Virus record (IMG/VR): IMGVR_UViG_3300048672_000448
Coordinates: 1-30,396 of that record
DNA length: 30,396 nt
Reading direction: 5' to 3' (one strand)
DNA from: a virus
This document shows, piece by piece, positions 1,120 through 22,841 of the stretch. The notes beneath the pieces were generated by a model that did not search any database, was not told the origin of the DNA, and saw only the letters and a program-made list of their open reading frames with translations. How positions within the stretch are numbered: the stretch's first letter is position 1; each line of letters begins with the position of its first letter. The position numbers and the translations under genes were made by a program.

Positions 1120-1869
1120 TTATGATGATAAAAGTTTGATATTAATATCAGTTTCTTTTTTATTAAATAACGTATCTTCATTTTTTCGATACATAGTATT
1201 ATTTTCTAATTTTGCCATTTCTGCAACTAAATTAGCTAATTTCATACTTTGACTGTTTTCGCTTGCTGTTAAATAGTCCCAAACACCATTTCTTAAAATC
1301 TCATATTTATTAATTAAAGCAAGTTTGTCAATTTTATTATTAGCTTTACTAATTACATGATTTTCACTACAATATAGTTTAAGCCTTGTATTTATTTCTT
1401 CTTGACCTAATCCTAAAATATCATTTCTCATTTTATGAAAATCAACAAAAGGGTTTCTACTGTGGCTTTTCCCTACAAATTTATTCATATGTATTTTTTC
1501 TGCTTCTTTGCAATTTGAAACGTACTTAAATACCTCCTTTAATTTTACTAAATATAAAATTTGCTCATGTGAAAGTAAATCTGAACTTTCAACTTTATTT
1601 GAAAGATTAATTAACCATCTTCTTATTTGTTTTCCTTTTTCATTTCTTTCTAATAAACAAATTTCTTTGCAAGCATCTAATGAAAAGAAATATTCTCTTT
1701 TTGGTCGTCCACCTGTACTTTCCGTCAATTTTGACGTAAAGTCTTTTCCTTCTATTAAATCAGCATCACTTATTTTTCTATTAATCCAATGGTAATACTC
1801 CGTTTTACTTTGTATTTTTCGATAAAGTTCTGTTGCTTCAACAAAACCATCTTTATTAATTATTATCAT
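1120..1869 (-). CDS. Phage antirepressor, AntA/AntB domain
   Basis: The 249-residue protein opens with an AntA/AntB-type N-terminal domain (about residues 5-90). Visible family features are GFVEATELYRKI near the start, a YYHWINRKI segment, FTSKLTESTGGRPKREYFFS and the closing DACKEICLLERNEKGKQIRRWLI helix. The rest is charged and helical with no recognised second domain. AntA/AntB proteins are known in temperate phages as antirepressors that oppose a lysogenic repressor. Such genes usually lie near the immunity region; here it sits between spanin-like and holin-like genes, preceded by 236 bp of AT-rich non-coding DNA with its own promoter-like element. It is therefore probably a separate transcription unit. 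The target repressor is not in the window. Confidence 0.8.
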   Translation of the reverse strand: MIIINKDGFVEATELYRKIQSKTEYYHWINRKISDADLIEGKDFTSKLTESTGGRPKREYFFSLDACKEICLLERNEKGKQIRRWLINLSNKVESSDLLSHEQILYLVKLKEVFKYVSNCKEAEKIHMNKFVGKSHSRNPFVDFHKMRNDILGLGQEEINTRLKLYCSENHVISKANNKIDKLALINKYEILRNGVWDYLTASENSQSMKLANLVAEMAKLENNTMYRKNEDTLFNKKETDINIKLLSS

Positions 1870-7317: not shown

Positions 7318-9585
7318 TTAGTTTGAGTAATCTGATAATGTATCAGTATCTGTCGTTCTGTTTCCGTTTACTTTAATAATTTTTATTGACGTTTTTGTGA
7401 TTGTACTCATATTAATTGTATAAGAATGACTTGCCCCTGACACTAATTTTTTTTGTAATAAAGGCTGATATGGGTCTAATCCGTAAACCTCCATTGTAAT
7501 AGGATAGCTACCTGTATTTTCCATATAAACCGTAAAGTTTTGTCCTCCTATTGGAATATACATAAGTGCATCGTTCAAAATAGGGTTTGCAGGACTACGT
7601 TCGGGATGGTTATTTTGACGAGGGTCAGTATTATCTTGCGTAGAATAATAAGCAATGCTTTGCGTATTTCTAACGTATATGATATTATCCGTTGCTCCCT
7701 TAATATACCAATTAGACTTTGCAGGTTGTCCTGCTATGTAGCTAATTGAGTGCGTCATTGCCCAAAGACGAAACCTATTTGTATTATAGTCATTTTGTAA
7801 AGTACTAAACTCCCCTGCATTATAATAATCGTTAGATTTTAGGTCTGCTGAGTTCAAACAAAATGTATGAGTGTCATAAATTTGTAAAGGAAAATTACAC
7901 GATTCAGAAGGCGGAATGTCAATGTTATCCGTTTGAAACATATTTATACGCTTGTTGTTGCTGCCACCTGCCGACCTCCACGAACTCAACCAAGAATCAT
8001 AACTCAATAAAATATTTCCTAAGCTATAATTTACCGTTATGTCTCCGCTAATCCTGCCGTTTTGCGTAGCCATATATGCCTTCAATTCTACTATACATTC
8101 AAGCAATGATACGAAGTTTGCAACGTTGTACTTATCACCGATGAAAAGAATATCTTTTGCACCGCTTTCTATACACGCTTTGCCCATGTAAATCATCATA
8201 GACTTCATTTCTGCGGCTGTCGTTGCTCCGTACATATCGCTAAAGAAATCGTACATATTTAACTCTGTACCTAATTTTTTAGAGTAATTTGTGCGAAGTA
8301 CGTCTAGCGTAATAGAAAGGTCAGGCGAACGTAACGACTTGCCAAATTGTGCCTTCATCATATCGCTATAAGTAGGCATATCATTTACGTTAATTGCCAT
8401 TCGTCTAGGTGCTAGCGTATCCGTACATGACCCCCATTCTAAGACATATTTTGCAGTTGTGGCATAAGTGTTGATAACCGCTTTACAATCTTCTTGAAAA
8501 CCTTTTACAAGCGAATAATTCCATTGCCACCAATCATAGCCCAATGCAGTTGAATAAGTTGAGTTATCGCCATTCGTAGGAGGTTCAACCACTGAAAAAC
8601 TAGCGAAACTTGTACCCCAATGCGTATTAGCTGTTCCGATTGTGCTGTATAAACCTGTTACGTAAGTCCTAAACCCCGATTTTGAGTAACTTGAATAGTC
8701 GTATGAGGTTTGATAACGAGCGGCAGGATATTGTTGATTTTCGTAACCGTAACCGCACTCCCATTGTGCGGCAGTTCCACATGACATTTGCAAGATAGAA
8801 CTTCCATTGCTTGCTACTCTTGCAGCGTAACGAGTAGCAGCTTTTTGCACAAAATCTAATGCTTGTGCCGTTGCTGTTGTGTTTGCAAAACTTATTTGTC
8901 CGATACCTTCCGCAACTCTACTAACAAATCCTAAATGGTCTTTTGCCATTTCTGACAAACCAATAAAACCGCTTGTGTTTGTGCCTTCAATGTCATTGTG
9001 GCTACCATCATCAAGTGTTAGAACTAATCGAATAGCAACTTTTACCTTATTGCCATTTGTGGCAGTTTTTGACGTTGCATAATCAATCAATTCATCATAA
9101 AAAGCCCAACATCTGTCGTGATTCGTTGTTTGTGAGTAATCCGTTACGCTAGCAGGTGGCGTATAAGTATTAAACACCCCACCATTTGGAGAAGAACTGT
9201 TCCCGTTCCAAATAACCGACAACATGATATAAGTCACACCGTTGGCAATAGCATCGTCATATTCAGATTTAGCTTTGGCAATGTCACGCTCTGGAAAGTT
9301 TGACATATAACCTACTTCTGTTGTTGATTCGTACAAATCATCGGCAGGAACGTCACTATATCCGCTCGGAATATTGCTTAATGCTTCCGATTGAGAAGTA
9401 AAATAACCATTTGCATTGTTTGCCCTTCGGTCTGTTAATACTCCACTTGAATTTGACTTTATCCAATAAAATTGGTCAACTGCTGTCCCACTTCCTTCTA
9501 CTTTTTTTGAGGTAAAGTAAAGAGAAAGAAAGTCACTCCCATTTGTGACCACATAACCCATGAAAATCGGCTGTGAAACTGCCAT
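7318..9585 (-). CDS. GH42-like TIM-barrel glycoside hydrolase, tail-associated
   Basis: The 755-residue protein resembles family GH42 beta-galactosidase-type barrels. A GVTYIMLSVIW strand lies at 116-126 and an AIRLVLTLDDG strand near 184. SCGTAAQWECGYGYE at 268-282 has E276 in the position expected of the acid/base. NTHWGTSFASFSVVEPP lies about 45 residues later (320-336), as in GH42. YVLEWGS at 380-386 has E383 as candidate nucleophile. A C-terminal beta-sandwich (about 680-755) follows. It lacks a signal peptide and sits between hub and spike genes, so it is probably a virion-borne enzyme that trims capsule or exopolysaccharide. The substrate cannot be read from sequence. Its ATG shares one base with the upstream stop. 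Confidence 0.65.
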   Translation of the reverse strand: MAVSQPIFMGYVVTNGSDFLSLYFTSKKVEGSGTAVDQFYWIKSNSSGVLTDRRANNANGYFTSQSEALSNIPSGYSDVPADDLYESTTEVGYMSNFPERDIAKAKSEYDDAIANGVTYIMLSVIWNGNSSSPNGGVFNTYTPPASVTDYSQTTNHDRCWAFYDELIDYATSKTATNGNKVKVAIRLVLTLDDGSHNDIEGTNTSGFIGLSEMAKDHLGFVSRVAEGIGQISFANTTATAQALDFVQKAATRYAARVASNGSSILQMSCGTAAQWECGYGYENQQYPAARYQTSYDYSSYSKSGFRTYVTGLYSTIGTANTHWGTSFASFSVVEPPTNGDNSTYSTALGYDWWQWNYSLVKGFQEDCKAVINTYATTAKYVLEWGSCTDTLAPRRMAINVNDMPTYSDMMKAQFGKSLRSPDLSITLDVLRTNYSKKLGTELNMYDFFSDMYGATTAAEMKSMMIYMGKACIESGAKDILFIGDKYNVANFVSLLECIVELKAYMATQNGRISGDITVNYSLGNILLSYDSWLSSWRSAGGSNNKRINMFQTDNIDIPPSESCNFPLQIYDTHTFCLNSADLKSNDYYNAGEFSTLQNDYNTNRFRLWAMTHSISYIAGQPAKSNWYIKGATDNIIYVRNTQSIAYYSTQDNTDPRQNNHPERSPANPILNDALMYIPIGGQNFTVYMENTGSYPITMEVYGLDPYQPLLQKKLVSGASHSYTINMSTITKTSIKIIKVNGNRTTDTDTLSDYSN

Positions 9586-18576: not shown

Positions 18577-19097
18577 GTTGGTCTATAATTTAAAGCAATT
18601 GTCCGCCAATTGTTAGGCAAAATACTGCTACTTGATAAAGAGATTCCGTACCTTTGCACAAAGTTATCAACCACGTGCTTAACAATAGCTAATTTTAAAT
18701 CTTCTGGTGTTGACGATCCATACCCTGCTGTATAAGTTACAACTAAACCATTTACAAACGTTCCGTAAATAGTTTTTTTCTTTGAACCTTTAACGATGTA
18801 ATCAGCATCTAAAACTAATGTGTCTTCACCCGAAACAACGCTATTAATCGAATTAATAATTGGATAAGGCAATACTACTGATTCATTGACATAATCCCAC
18901 TCGGCACGAACAGTTTTAGTTACAATAGCTATTGAAGCTAATTTTTCAATTTCAACCCTTGCTGCTTTTATCAAAGAAGTCAATAAAGTGTCGTGAGTAG
19001 ATGTACTAATTGCAGCATATAACTTTACATAAGCTAAGTCTACAACTTCACTACCTATACTTGAAAAAGTAACATCAATTAGATTCGTTGTTGCCAT
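18561..19097 (-). CDS. Head-tail connector (gp6-like adaptor)
   Basis: The 178-residue protein matches gp6/gp15-type connectors (PF05135 group). A helical N-terminal part (LAYVKLYAAISTSTHDTLLTSLIKAARVEIEKLA, about 21-54) is followed by a beta region (TVRAEWDYVNESVVLPYPIINSINSV) and a GLVVTYTAGYGSSTPEDLKLAIVKHVVDNF segment (about 118-147), a common adaptor signature. It would form the ring directly under the portal. It follows the small ORF at 19075-19254 and overlaps it by 23 nt. Confidence 0.85.
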   Translation of the reverse strand: MATTNLIDVTFSSIGSEVVDLAYVKLYAAISTSTHDTLLTSLIKAARVEIEKLASIAIVTKTVRAEWDYVNESVVLPYPIINSINSVVSGEDTLVLDADYIVKGSKKKTIYGTFVNGLVVTYTAGYGSSTPEDLKLAIVKHVVDNFVQRYGISLSSSSILPNNWRTIALNYRPTWMMF

Positions 19098-19254
19098 TAT
19101 CTTTTTTTAATTTCAATTCTTTTGTTTTTACAATTTCAACATTTCCACGTTTAGCATGAAAATTTGCTCTTGCTTCGTCCATACTTGCCGTTTCTCCTGC
19201 CTTTACCTCAACTATTCCATGCAAGTCTTTTAATGCCTTTATTACTGTTTCCAT
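19075..19254 (-). CDS. Small 59-aa phage protein bridging two genes
   Basis: An ATG at 19254 opens a frame of 59 residues reading METVIKALKDLHGIVEVKAG, then ETASMDEARANFHAKRGNVEIV and a lysine-rich, asparagine-rich tail. It fills the otherwise empty gap between the second glycosyltransferase (13-nt overlap) and the connector (23-nt overlap). The pattern of VKAL followed by a short strand, then ...A...RGxVE, resembles small proteins often encoded just after major capsid genes in siphophages. The function of those is generally unknown. Filling a gap with overlaps on both sides supports a real gene. Confidence 0.65.
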   Translation of the reverse strand: METVIKALKDLHGIVEVKAGETASMDEARANFHAKRGNVEIVKTKELKLKKDNGNNESN

Positions 19255-20204
19255 TGCTTTATGTTATGAATATTTAGTAAGAACTTATTTAAGTTTGAAA
19301 GGTAAACTTTTGGGTCTAATTCTTTAGCTCTTTGCTTTGATTGTTCGGACCGCTTTTTATAAACGTCTTTATCAGTCATTAATAACTCAATTTCTTTTAC
19401 CCACAAATCAATTTTATTAATGTCGATTCCTTCTTGGTTGAGTGCTTCTGATAATCCTTTTGCTGTGCTGTTAATTACAGGTATTCCGCAACTTATCGAT
19501 TCGATTGCTACTTGTCCGTAGCTTTCGTATTGACTAGGCATTAGTACTATCTTGCTTTTCTCATATACTTTCTTAATATCGCTTTGCGGTTCAATATACT
19601 TGATATTCTTAATCGAATTGTCTTGTATTTGCTCATAATATCCACCTTGAACGCCTAAGAATTTATACTGTGGCAACCTTTTAGCTAATTCTATTAACAT
19701 TTGACCGCCTTTGTTTTCATTTAGGTTTATCAGTGTAATATAGTCTCCACTATTTTTTACATTCTGATAATCTCTATAATCAACTGGAGGAATACAAACG
19801 CAATTTGGTTGCTCATATTTTAAAATCCTTTTTACGTATTCAGAATTATAAACTATGTAATTTGCATTAACTCTACACCTTAAAATATGGTCTCCGTATG
19901 AGTTATGTACTAAATGAACTAACTTTTTATTAAACTGTCTCGCTCGATTAAAACAATGATAAGTATTGCCTAAATGAGTGATAACTAAATCCGACCACGT
20001 CCATTCTTTTCTATCATCTTCGCCTTGTTTCCAACTTAACACCTCAACACCATCTAAGTAGTTTTTCTTTTTTGTTGCTGTCAATGATAAAACCTTTACT
20101 TGGTGTCCTTCGCTTACTAAGTACCTTGCAATCTTATGAGCCATTGTTTCCGCTCCTGCTAATACTTCATTTGGATAAGCGTGTAAATGAAAAAGAATAT
20201 TCAT
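19242..20204 (-). CDS. Glycosyltransferase, GT4 family (GT-B fold)
   Basis: A 320-residue GT-B enzyme. The N-terminal domain begins MNILFHLHAYPNEVLAGAET with the glycine-rich acceptor-side loop and has LVHNSYG near 98-104. The C-terminal domain opens with ITLINLNENKGGQ (K165 is a candidate phosphate contact) and holds the family's EX7E motif, ESYGQVAIE (E227, E235), followed by CGIPVINS. GT4 enzymes transfer sugars from nucleotide donors with retention of configuration. It overlaps the upstream GT25-like gene as ATGA (20201-20204), so the two are probably translated together. Placement directly after the capsid gene suggests virion-protein glycosylation, or modification of a host surface glycan. 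Donor and acceptor cannot be inferred. Confidence 0.85.
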   Translation of the reverse strand: MNILFHLHAYPNEVLAGAETMAHKIARYLVSEGHQVKVLSLTATKKKNYLDGVEVLSWKQGEDDRKEWTWSDLVITHLGNTYHCFNRARQFNKKLVHLVHNSYGDHILRCRVNANYIVYNSEYVKRILKYEQPNCVCIPPVDYRDYQNVKNSGDYITLINLNENKGGQMLIELAKRLPQYKFLGVQGGYYEQIQDNSIKNIKYIEPQSDIKKVYEKSKIVLMPSQYESYGQVAIESISCGIPVINSTAKGLSEALNQEGIDINKIDLWVKEIELLMTDKDVYKKRSEQSKQRAKELDPKVYLSNLNKFLLNIHNIKQWKQ

Positions 20205-20842
20205 ATAAATCTGTTTTGGGCTACTTTAAACGCTTCATCATAATCTGCATACCCATTTATAATATTAGAGTAACTCGCTCTTTGTACCGCAACCATCGGG
20301 TAAATAATATAGCACTTTTTTAATGGTTGTGCTGTTACTCTCAAAAAGTCATCGAATACTAATTCTTTATCCCAATACTCCAAGCACCAATTACGAAACT
20401 TTTTTGTCATTATGATTGCATGAGTACTCCATCCGTTCTCTAACCTATATAAATTACCTCCTACTCTACCAAAATGCGTTGATTGTAGGTTTGAACCCAA
20501 ATAAAACGCATCAAAATCGTTTGGCAATTCATTAATTGCATCTTTTATGTGACTTAAATCACCTATAAATTTGCAATCATCTTCAACTAAAAATAAATTT
20601 TCAATATCTTGATTTTCTTCTAAAATTCTTAAAATAGATTGATTGTAACCAATTCTACCATCTTCATTTTTTATTGCAGAAAACCGCTCAAATTCAATTC
20701 CTACACTGTTTAACTCTTTTGTAACTTGTTCTAACCTGTCAGTCCTTTCATCTAAATTAAGAACTATTGTTTTTTGTATAAAACGTGGAGGAATAACCCC
20801 CACGTTTCTACTATTTTCGCTTATGATGCTAACGCTGTCCAT
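20201..20842 (-). CDS. Glycosyltransferase, GT25-like (LPS-type)
   Basis: The 213-residue protein resembles GT25 enzymes. It has TIVLNLDERTDRLEQV at 25-40 (the family's VINLxxRxDR start), a FSAIKNEDGRIGYNQSILRIL segment at about 54-73 and FLVEDDC at 84-90, with EDD (87-89) as the probable metal/nucleotide-binding acidic motif. GWSTHAIIMTKKF lies at about 137-149 and FDDFL at 163-167. GT25 members modify LPS or glycosylate hydroxylysine. The start overlaps the capsid gene's end by 22 nt, so expression should follow capsid translation. No transmembrane segment is visible. Whether the acceptor is the capsid, the GT4 product or host LPS is open. Confidence 0.8.
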   Translation of the reverse strand: MDSVSIISENSRNVGVIPPRFIQKTIVLNLDERTDRLEQVTKELNSVGIEFERFSAIKNEDGRIGYNQSILRILEENQDIENLFLVEDDCKFIGDLSHIKDAINELPNDFDAFYLGSNLQSTHFGRVGGNLYRLENGWSTHAIIMTKKFRNWCLEYWDKELVFDDFLRVTAQPLKKCYIIYPMVAVQRASYSNIINGYADYDEAFKVAQNRFI

Positions 20843-22071
20843 GTACCTGTGATGAATGCTGCTGGTATATAAGTTGCTAAACCAACTCTTTCTTCCACAC
20901 GAATCGTTACCAAGTTCTTTTGGAAGTTGTCGCTATCTTCACGTGAAATATCCACTTGAATAGCATTACGTACCAAGAACTCCGATTGCGAGAAGTCACC
21001 AACCAAGAAAGCATTTGTAGCCATTGCTGTCGATGAGTACAAAGGAACACCAAACAAACGTATAGAGTTATCTGCTCCTATTGTTAAGCCCATGTATGGC
21101 GAAGTGTATTCTTTGGTTGTTGTTTTGATTTGTGCCAACTCATAATAAGCATAAGGATTAACTAAAATTCCGTTTGGAGAATAATTAGAACTTGCTAATT
21201 GTGAGATTGCATTAATCAAGTAACTGAAACGGTCAGCCGACGAAGTATTTGCTGCACCTGTTGGAGCATATGCAGTTGCTTGTGTGATAATACCGTTCAA
21301 GGTATTAGAAGTCCCTGCACCGTTCAAAATTTGGTCATCCTCTTTGTCAAGTAATTGCTCAACCATACGACCAGAAGTAAATGCCAACAAACGAGGAATA
21401 TCTTGTAAGATTTGCTCTGAATGTCTTTGGAAGTGTGCAATTACAATCGGTGTTGCTGTTACGTATGCAACGTCTGCATCCGTTTGAGACTTAGCTGAGC
21501 CTTCTGTTTGAATACCTACTGAACCTTCTCCATTTGTATAGCGTGGAAACGAGTAAATGGCATCTGTTAACGGAACTGATGGAATTAATGAGCGTACGTG
21601 TGTTTTTCTGTTTGGAGAAAAAGCAAAATTGTTTGAGAACGATGTTGGTAAAGTTCCTGTAACATTGCTTGACGTTACATTGCCAACTGCCTTAGAGAAA
21701 AGTAGTTCTTGACCTGCTTCAATGTCAAAAGAAATACCTCTGCTTTTGCGATTTTTGATTTTCTCAATGTCCTCTTTTGCTTGTTCAGCTTGTTCTGCAA
21801 GGTCTTGATGGAAAGATTTAGTTTTTGCATCAAACGCTTGGTTAGTACGTTTAGCTGCCAATTCGATTGCATCTTGTTGCTTGCCTAACGCTTCTAATTG
21901 TGCTTTTACTTCACCGTGCTTTACCAAAAGGTTGTTAAGTTCTGTTTTAACAGTTTCCTCAACTCCTTTTACGCTTAACTTTGCCTGCTCATCATATTTA
22001 TTGATGCGTGAATCAATCGAAGTTTCGATAGACTTAACAACTGCATCTAATTGTGCTTGTTCAAGTGCCAT
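20821..22071 (-). CDS. Major capsid protein, HK97 fold
   Basis: A 416-residue HK97-type capsid protein (PF05065). Residues 1-110 form a charged helical delta (scaffold) domain, ending near KNRKSRGISFDIEAG, a plausible protease cleavage area. The shell domain follows with NVTGTLPTSFSN, PRYTNGEGSVGIQTEGSAKSQTDADVAYVTATPIVIAHFQRHSEQIL (E-loop and spine-helix start), LLDKEDDQILNGAGT and the closing QKNLVTIRVEERVGLATYIPAAFITGTW. It lies immediately after the prohead protease, the canonical order. Its last 22 nt overlap the GT25-like gene. Confidence 0.93.
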   Translation of the reverse strand: MALEQAQLDAVVKSIETSIDSRINKYDEQAKLSVKGVEETVKTELNNLLVKHGEVKAQLEALGKQQDAIELAAKRTNQAFDAKTKSFHQDLAEQAEQAKEDIEKIKNRKSRGISFDIEAGQELLFSKAVGNVTSSNVTGTLPTSFSNNFAFSPNRKTHVRSLIPSVPLTDAIYSFPRYTNGEGSVGIQTEGSAKSQTDADVAYVTATPIVIAHFQRHSEQILQDIPRLLAFTSGRMVEQLLDKEDDQILNGAGTSNTLNGIITQATAYAPTGAANTSSADRFSYLINAISQLASSNYSPNGILVNPYAYYELAQIKTTTKEYTSPYMGLTIGADNSIRLFGVPLYSSTAMATNAFLVGDFSQSEFLVRNAIQVDISREDSDNFQKNLVTIRVEERVGLATYIPAAFITGTWTALAS

Positions 22072-22094: not shown

Positions 22095-22841
22095 TTATAT
22101 TTGTGATAATCTGCTCAAAAAATAATCAAAATTTACTTCCTCTTTCGGTTGAGGTGCTTCTTTTGCGACCTCAATGAGTTCTTTTTTTACAAAGTTTTCT
22201 TCAATTATATTTTCAAGTAATTTGATTTCAATATCAAGTAAAGGGAAAAACTCATCTGTAAAATTACCGTTCTTATATGCCTTAGTTAATCTTTTTAACT
22301 GATTAAAGACTTTTGAAAGGTCATTGTCGTACACTTGTGAGAATAGGTTTTTTACTTCTAATGTTGGTGTATCTGGATTTGCTCCCCAAAGAACAGTTGA
22401 ACCTTCATATAATTTAGCTTCGTAAATTACGTTATAAGCGTTTCCATTAGTCGGGTCTGTTTTTGCTTCCCATTTGCCTTTTGGCACTCCGAACATTACG
22501 CTGTGCTGATTCCAAATACCATCTTGATACCCTTTTAAAATATCGTTAGCATGAGCGGAATCTCGTATTGTAGAGGTCATTTTCAATCCATATCCATCTT
22601 CTTCAAAGAACGGCTTACTTAATACGTATTCGGGTTGCGTGCGATGATTAGAAAGGTGAAAAAGTTCGTTTGTTCCGTTACTTCCTCTTTCTGAAATGCT
22701 TTTTTTGTAGCACCCTTGCATCATCATATCACCGTCTAAGTCAATATTTCCAAACTTAGATACGTAAGCTACAATCGTTCTTTTAGACATATCTACGTCC
22801 AAAAGTTCAGTTGCAATATTTTTATATTGTGTGGATTTCAT
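22095..22841 (-). CDS. Prohead protease, HK97 family (U35)
   Basis: The 248-residue protein carries the HK97 prohead protease domain (PF04586) in about residues 20-165. Landmarks are VAYVSKFGNIDLDGDMMMQGCY at 24-45, FHLSNHRTQ at 61-69 with H66 as catalytic histidine, and GIWNQHSVMFGV at 108-119 with S114 as nucleophile. KLYEGSTVLWGANPDTPTL (143-161) probably contributes the third residue. The C-terminal 80 residues are charged and helical, possibly a scaffold-like extension. It would trim the capsid delta domain during maturation. On its 5' side it diverges from the rightward cassette at 22951. Confidence 0.9.
   Translation of the reverse strand: MKSTQYKNIATELLDVDMSKRTIVAYVSKFGNIDLDGDMMMQGCYKKSISERGSNGTNELFHLSNHRTQPEYVLSKPFFEEDGYGLKMTSTIRDSAHANDILKGYQDGIWNQHSVMFGVPKGKWEAKTDPTNGNAYNVIYEAKLYEGSTVLWGANPDTPTLEVKNLFSQVYDNDLSKVFNQLKRLTKAYKNGNFTDEFFPLLDIEIKLLENIIEENFVKKELIEVAKEAPQPKEEVNFDYFLSRLSQI

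What the first reader, a model, noticed from the sequence alone, without database searches (positions are those of the whole stretch)
19242..20842. Two co-translated glycosyltransferases embedded between the capsid and connector genes
A GT25-like and a GT4-like enzyme are joined by ATGA, and the first overlaps the major capsid gene by 22 nt, so both should be made late, at capsid levels of transcription. O-antigen-modifying phage enzymes usually sit near the attachment site with a flippase; none is seen here. Mycobacteriophages are known to glycosylate capsid or tail proteins using enzymes encoded beside the structural genes, so a virion-glycosylation system in a Bacteroidota phage is the simplest reading. 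The two enzymes could add successive sugars. This is the strongest candidate for an undescribed system here.
Basis: partly seen in the sequence, partly recalled or inferred. Interest (0 to 1): 0.8.

Follow-up and report, generated by a model that had tools for sequence, protein, structure and literature searches.

The report
Capsid-linked sugar-transferase pair in phage
A phage that probably infects Bacteroidota carries two sugar-attaching enzymes locked into its capsid gene block; the same block, often with extra sugar-transfer and methylation enzymes, recurs in many uncultured phages, so these viruses probably coat their own particles with glycans, as a few mycobacteriophages are known to do.

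Summary
A GT25-type (20201-20842, -) and a GT4-type (19242-20204, -) glycosyltransferase are joined by ATGA; the first overlaps the major capsid gene by 22 nt, and both precede the head-tail adaptor.

The linkage is conserved. Of 38 GT4 relatives in uncultured viral contigs, 32 lie within 4.5 kb of a capsid gene and four more are fragments cut inside the block. Of 69 GT25 relatives, 63 lie near a capsid gene; the other six are fragments. GT4 divergence tracks capsid divergence as closely as the adaptor's does. Between capsid and GT4 sits a variable slot: nothing, GT25 alone, an FkbM or other methyltransferase, or GT25 plus GT2, GT11 and methyltransferases.

No integrase, GtrA flippase, thymidylate synthase or sugar-nucleotide epimerase was found in the window's long relatives, apart from one integrase. 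Che8 gp110, reported as essential for mycobacteriophage capsid glycosylation, is itself Pfam GT25; cluster O mycobacteriophages carry a similar cassette in the head block.

Best reading: a virion (most likely capsid) glycosylation module, new in this phage group but of a known kind. Acceptor, sugar and linkage remain unproven.

The parts
20821..22071 (-). Major capsid protein, HK97 type, 416 aa; proposed acceptor (inferred)
   Evidence: PF05065 E 7.7e-38; phrog_10 major head protein E 3.2e-49
20201..20842 (-). GT25-like glycosyltransferase, 213 aa; start overlaps MCP end by 22 nt
   Evidence: PF01755 29.4 bits over cut-off 24; EDD motif (87-89) and D164 invariant in 12 relatives; model pLDDT 89, nearest solved fold COLGALT1 Z 20.5
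19242..20204 (-). GT4-like glycosyltransferase, 320 aa, joined to GT25 by ATGA; the near-constant member of the module
   Evidence: PF00534 61.6 bits, phrog_26352 E 4.3e-53; K165-G166 and E227-x7-E235 invariant in 17 relatives; model pLDDT 89.3, GT-B/GT4 neighbours Z 24-30
19075..19254 (-). Small ORF, 59 aa, between GT4 and the head-tail adaptor; overlaps both; function unknown
   Evidence: read; positional counterparts of 57-59 aa in L002, L006, L086; no Pfam match to 57 of its residues
18561..19097 (-). Head-tail adaptor; downstream boundary of the slot
   Evidence: phrog_442 E 1.3e-14; PF05135 E 3.4e-4
22095..22841 (-). Prohead protease; upstream structural neighbour
   Evidence: PF04586 E 3.4e-13

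Best explanation
The pair is a capsid-operon glycosylation module. Both enzymes are soluble, intact-looking glycosyltransferases (GT-A fold GT25 and GT-B fold GT4), probably translated with the late head genes (inferred from one-strand, overlapping gene order). They most likely take nucleotide sugars from the host and build a short glycan on a virion protein, most likely the major capsid protein, in the cytoplasm before lysis. GT4 probably does the step that is always needed, possibly protein attachment, because several relatives carry GT4 without GT25. GT25 and, in other phages, GT2, GT11 and FkbM or other methyltransferases in the same slot would extend or cap the glycan. Because the slot content varies, related phages would display different glycans. 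Shown: families, fold predictions, invariant catalytic-type motifs, gene order, conservation, co-inheritance, absence of the searched rival-pathway genes. Inferred: expression timing, acceptor, sugar, order of addition, benefit to the phage.
For: MCP-slot-GT4-adaptor order across diverged phages, down to about 26% MCP identity. GT4 distances follow MCP distances (rho 0.63; MCP-adaptor 0.51, MCP-protease 0.40; 0/500 permutations as high). Slot enzymes GT11, GT2, FkbM and other SAM methyltransferases. Exactly one PF00534 match in each of 13 records of 22-95 kb, which is the slot gene. Che8 gp110 is PF01755 and is named essential for capsid glycosylation in PMC12363180. Firecracker (cluster O) has O-MTase, GT, GT and GT25 between portal and protease. 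MCP-GT4 linkage also in a Streptomyces phage-plasmid, and a GT after the MCP in phage TurkishDelight. Nearest solved fold of GT25 is human collagen galactosyltransferase COLGALT1, a protein-modifying enzyme.
Against: No mass data or glycan staining exist for any member known to me. No acceptor signature was found: the MCPs share no obvious Ser/Thr-rich extension, and a conserved C-terminal Ser is missing in the L177-type clade. The window-type and Che8-type GT25 profiles match each other only weakly. More distant GT25 relatives (23-40% identity) sit in GT clusters of large phages without a detected MCP, so the family is not restricted to capsids. COLGALT1 similarity is a fold match and does not set the acceptor.
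Confidence: 0.75

Rival explanations
1. Host-surface modification: the enzymes alter host capsule, LPS or a surface glycan late in infection to block superinfection or readsorption of progeny, and sit in the head operon only for late expression.
For: GT25 is annotated in Pfam as an LPS biosynthesis family; a glycosyltransferase between portal and MCP in gut 'Gratiaviridae' phages was read this way (PMC8008677).
Against: No GtrA match in 13 records; PF00589 integrase in only one; no membrane-like segment in either enzyme (maximum 19-residue hydropathy below 0.9); capsid-tracking inheritance of GT4 and a fixed position next to the MCP are not expected for an exchangeable host-takeover gene.
Confidence: 0.12
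2. A sub-reading of virion glycosylation: another virion protein (major tail protein, adaptor, small 59-aa protein or tail fibres) is the true acceptor, and the capsid is not modified.
For: Mycobacteriophages glycosylate tail-tube as well as capsid proteins (PMC12619734, PMC12363180); no acceptor motif is evident in the MCPs.
Against: The module lies directly against the MCP and GT4 tracks it best (rho 0.63); a related cassette type has GT25 between MuF and protease, still in the head block.
Confidence: 0.2
3. DNA hypermodification: the enzymes glycosylate modified bases of the phage genome.
For: Phage glycosyltransferases that modify DNA are well known (cited in PMC12619734).
Against: No thymidylate synthase/hydroxymethylase-type gene (PF00303) in 12 relatives of 22-95 kb, with a working control; the Tet/JBP search was also empty but had no positive control; GT11 and FkbM partners and the head-block location do not fit. 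All records may be fragments.
Confidence: 0.04

Closest known systems
Mycobacteriophage virion glycosylation: cluster O (Corndog, Firecracker)
   Same: GT25-family enzyme plus other GTs and an O-methyltransferase inside the head gene block, overlapping genes; Corndog gp38 reported as essential for capsid glycosylation (PMC12363180, PMC4351075)
   Different: Cassette lies between portal and protease, no GT4 identified; different hosts; glycans demonstrated there, not here
Mycobacteriophage Che8 gp108-gp110
   Same: Overlapping GT genes; gp110 is PF01755; gp108 combines GT2 and a methyltransferase
   Different: Located at the right genome end; GT25 subfamilies only weakly alike; no GT4 found
Chlorovirus PBCV-1 MCP glycosylation
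   Same: Virus-encoded soluble GTs and a sugar methyltransferase build a complex glycan on the major capsid protein outside ER/Golgi (PMC7019647)
   Different: Eukaryotic virus with an unrelated (jelly-roll) capsid fold; a PBCV-1 capsid-glycosylation GT structure shares only the general GT-A fold (2p6w, Z 10.8)
Streptomyces phage TurkishDelight gp20 and Streptomyces sp. NBC_01369 phage-plasmid GT4
   Same: GT4-type gene directly after or close after the major capsid gene
   Different: Different phylum; no adjacent GT25 annotated; function untested
Cellulophaga baltica phage phi18:1 gp40-gp41
   Same: Overlapping Methyltransf_24 and glycosyltransferase genes in the head block of a cultured Bacteroidota phage
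   Different: GT belongs to PF04765, unrelated to the window pair by profile comparison; lies between MuF and protease

Membership tests
CAZy GT25 / Pfam PF01755 | Sequence match above the curated cut-off | tested here: met
   29.4 bits against 24, E 9.2e-7, best stretch residues 23-61 only
CAZy GT25 / Pfam PF01755 | GT-A fold closest to known GT25 enzymes, acidic metal-binding motif | tested here: met
   COLGALT1 Z 20.5, mimivirus R655 Z 17.6; EDD invariant in 12 relatives
CAZy GT25 / Pfam PF01755 | Glycosyl transfer activity and donor | not testable with these tools
   needs purified enzyme
CAZy GT4 / Pfam PF00534 | Match above cut-off, GT-B fold, E-x7-E motif and conserved Lys | tested here: met
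   61.6 bits against 26.4; GT-B/GT4 neighbours such as MshA, PglA, PimA at Z 26-30; K165 and E227/E235 invariant in 17 relatives
Phage virion glycosylation as in mycobacteriophages | Phage-encoded GT25-type enzyme linked to virion glycosylation | tested here: met
   Che8 gp110 and Firecracker gp36 match PF01755, as does the window protein; family level only
Phage virion glycosylation as in mycobacteriophages | Close homology of the GT25 enzymes | tested here: inconclusive
   hhalign of A3 against A6: probability 24%, E 8e-4, 41 columns around the EDD motif
Phage virion glycosylation as in mycobacteriophages | Glycans present on capsid or tail proteins | not testable with these tools
   needs mass spectrometry of virions
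Serotype-converting gtr cassette | GtrA flippase with the GTs | tested here: not met
   PF04138 absent in window and 12 relatives, control positive; records may be fragments
Serotype-converting gtr cassette | Temperate phage, cassette by integrase/attachment site | tested here: not met
   PF00589 in 1 of 13 records, not in the window's; cassette is in the head operon

The most novel reading that the evidence does not exclude
A large, mostly uncultured assembly of tailed phages carries a dedicated capsid-glycan island in which GT4 is inherited like a structural gene while an interchangeable slot (GT25, GT2, GT11, FkbM and other methyltransferases) diversifies the glycan, giving phage particles variable surface coats comparable to bacterial O-antigens.
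Probability: 0.45. Interest if true: 0.78.

Novelty: new variant of a known kind. Interest (0 to 1): 0.64.

Why it matters
In the literature reached here, phage capsid glycosylation is demonstrated in a few mycobacteriophages, where shielding from mammalian antibodies is unlikely to explain its origin in soil phages. Finding a capsid-locked module in many environmental phages, probably including Bacteroidota phages, suggests that glycosylated phage particles are common in nature, and gives a testable question: what does the coat protect against or bind to outside the host? The variable slot also offers a natural series for linking gene content to glycan structure.

Tried and rejected
Single-sequence searches of viral contigs with either GT found no confirmed relatives; alignments were needed. 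The genome-contig scan gave only two weak hits (31% and 24% identity), so no prophage or named host was found. Nucleotide search of phage records was empty. The isolate collection has almost no close relatives of either enzyme. Acceptor search by comparing MCP C-termini and Ser/Thr content gave no clear signal. Recent horizontal acquisition was rejected because of matching GC and capsid-tracking distances. Flavobacterium phage 11b and Cellulophaga phi10:1 carry small ORFs, no annotated GT, in the same slot, so the module is not universal. Freeman et al. 2023, the primary paper on virion glycosylation, is not held; statements about it come from papers that cite it. Literature searches for a capsid-linked GT cassette in Bacteroidota phages found no description beyond PMC8008677 and PMC11946311.

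Full report
Observation. The two ORFs, the ATGA junction and the 22-nt overlap with the major capsid gene are exactly as described. The 213-aa protein is GT25-like and the 320-aa protein GT4-like; both pass Pfam's curated cut-offs. They lie in a one-strand head block: portal, MuF, protease, MCP, GT25, GT4, a 59-aa ORF, head-tail adaptor, Hc1, Neck1. The whole record is a 30,396-base virus contig. Its terminase is closest to Flavobacterium, Cellulophaga, Polaribacter and Bacteroides phages.

Enzymes. The EDD motif and D164 of GT25 are invariant in 12 relatives. K165-G166 and E227-x7-E235 of GT4 are invariant in 17. Structure models are good (pLDDT 89.0 and 89.3). GT25 is closest to human collagen galactosyltransferase COLGALT1 (Z 20.5, rmsd 2.9, 190 residues) and mimivirus R655, well above the general GT-A background near Z 9-10. 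GT4 matches many GT-B enzymes at Z 24-30 with no single standout, so its donor and acceptor cannot be read from fold.

Conservation of the linkage. Five contigs have MCPs 73-78% identical to the window's. Four carry GT4 (57-70% identical) at the same place and no GT25; the fifth, cut short, has a GT25 starting inside the MCP end. An alignment search found 38 GT4 loci. In 32 an MCP lies within 4.5 kb; four more are contigs cut inside the block; two have another context. A GT25 alignment found at least 323 relatives, of which the best 80 were kept. Of 69 scored new loci, 63 have an MCP within 4.5 kb and six are fragments. These counts include near-identical contigs. The window-type overlap of 22 nt recurs in L005, L086 and L091, and the -4 junction into GT4 in most lineages.

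Inheritance. On an MCP tree of 47 rows the GT label needs four changes, at least three forced by well-supported branches, so the module has been gained or lost several times, always at this position or, in L182-type phages, with GT25 moved between MuF and protease. Pairwise GT4 distances follow MCP distances (rho 0.63), at least as well as adaptor (0.51) or protease (0.40) distances do; GT25 follows less closely (0.40) and shows no correlation with protease (-0.03). The pairs of distances are not independent, so the permutation counts are a guide only. GT4 thus behaves like a structural gene and GT25 like a more exchangeable one.

Variable slot. Between MCP and GT4, relatives carry nothing, GT25 alone, an FkbM methyltransferase (L107, L191), another SAM methyltransferase (L098, L175), or long cassettes: L156 has GT25, two copies of an unassigned 230-aa family, an FkbM-like methyltransferase, GT2, GT11 and GT4; L114, L122, L158, L163 and L185 are similar. 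The 230-aa family is coherent (45-52% identity) with an invariant DAG motif, but has no Pfam match and is unassigned.

Rivals. Two long relatives (47-48 kb) have GT4 but no GT25 match. Each of 13 records has exactly one PF00534 match, in the slot. No GtrA, sugar-nucleotide epimerase or thymidylate synthase was found, with working controls; integrase appears once. The Tet/JBP search had no positive control. Donor sugars therefore probably come from the host. The records may be incomplete.

Known systems. PMC12363180, citing Freeman et al. 2023, names Che8 gp110 and Corndog gp38 as essential for capsid glycosylation. Che8 gp110 matches PF01755, as does Firecracker gp36, which lies in an O-methyltransferase-GT-GT-GT25 cassette between portal and protease (PMC4351075). 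The resemblance in enzyme families, methyltransferases and head-block position is strong; direct homology between the two GT25 subfamilies is weak. The module here differs in its near-constant GT4, its MCP-adaptor position and its phage group. Chlorovirus MCP glycosylation is a functional analogue (PMC7019647). Earlier readings of glycosyltransferases in head blocks of Bacteroidota-type phages left the function open or suggested host-surface change (PMC8008677, PMC11946311).

Conclusion. A virion glycosylation module, most likely acting on the capsid, is the best explanation (0.75 for virion glycosylation as such; the acceptor within the virion is less certain). It is a new variant of a known kind. 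The acceptor, sugars, linkage and order of addition are not shown.

Noticed in passing
L007-L050, e.g. L010:9950-10321: MCP relatives without GTs carry a PD-(D/E)XK (PF11645) endonuclease-like ORF in the 1.3-kb gap between MCP and head-tail adaptor; no Rfam intron family was convincingly matched there.
   Followed up: partly
L158:3174-3857; L205; L209; L216: GIY-YIG (confirmed in L158) and HNH-looking ORFs interrupt the glycosyltransferase slot, so this slot attracts mobile endonuclease genes.
   Followed up: partly
L156:8555-9253 and relatives: A recurring 230-aa slot protein family without Pfam match, with invariant Y82-D84-A85-G86; possibly another glycosyltransferase.
   Followed up: partly
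window 7318-9585 (-): 755-aa protein in the tail region with weak matches to glycoside hydrolase families 14 and 42, just under cut-off; possibly a host-glycan-degrading tail protein.
   Followed up: no
window 1120-1869 (-): Anti-repressor Ant homologue (phrog_5817, E 1.5e-27), hinting at a temperate or formerly temperate relative although no integrase is in the record.
   Followed up: no
window 20821-20830 (MCP C-terminus) and A5 alignment: MCPs of the window's clade and its GT25/GT4-bearing sister clades all end in Ser, unlike the L177-type clade; a possible but untested attachment site.
   Followed up: partly
L243:21056-22728: Cultured Cellulophaga phage phi18:1 has overlapping methyltransferase (annotated as DNA methyltransferase, but PF13578) and PF04765 glycosyltransferase genes in its head block.
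   Followed up: partly
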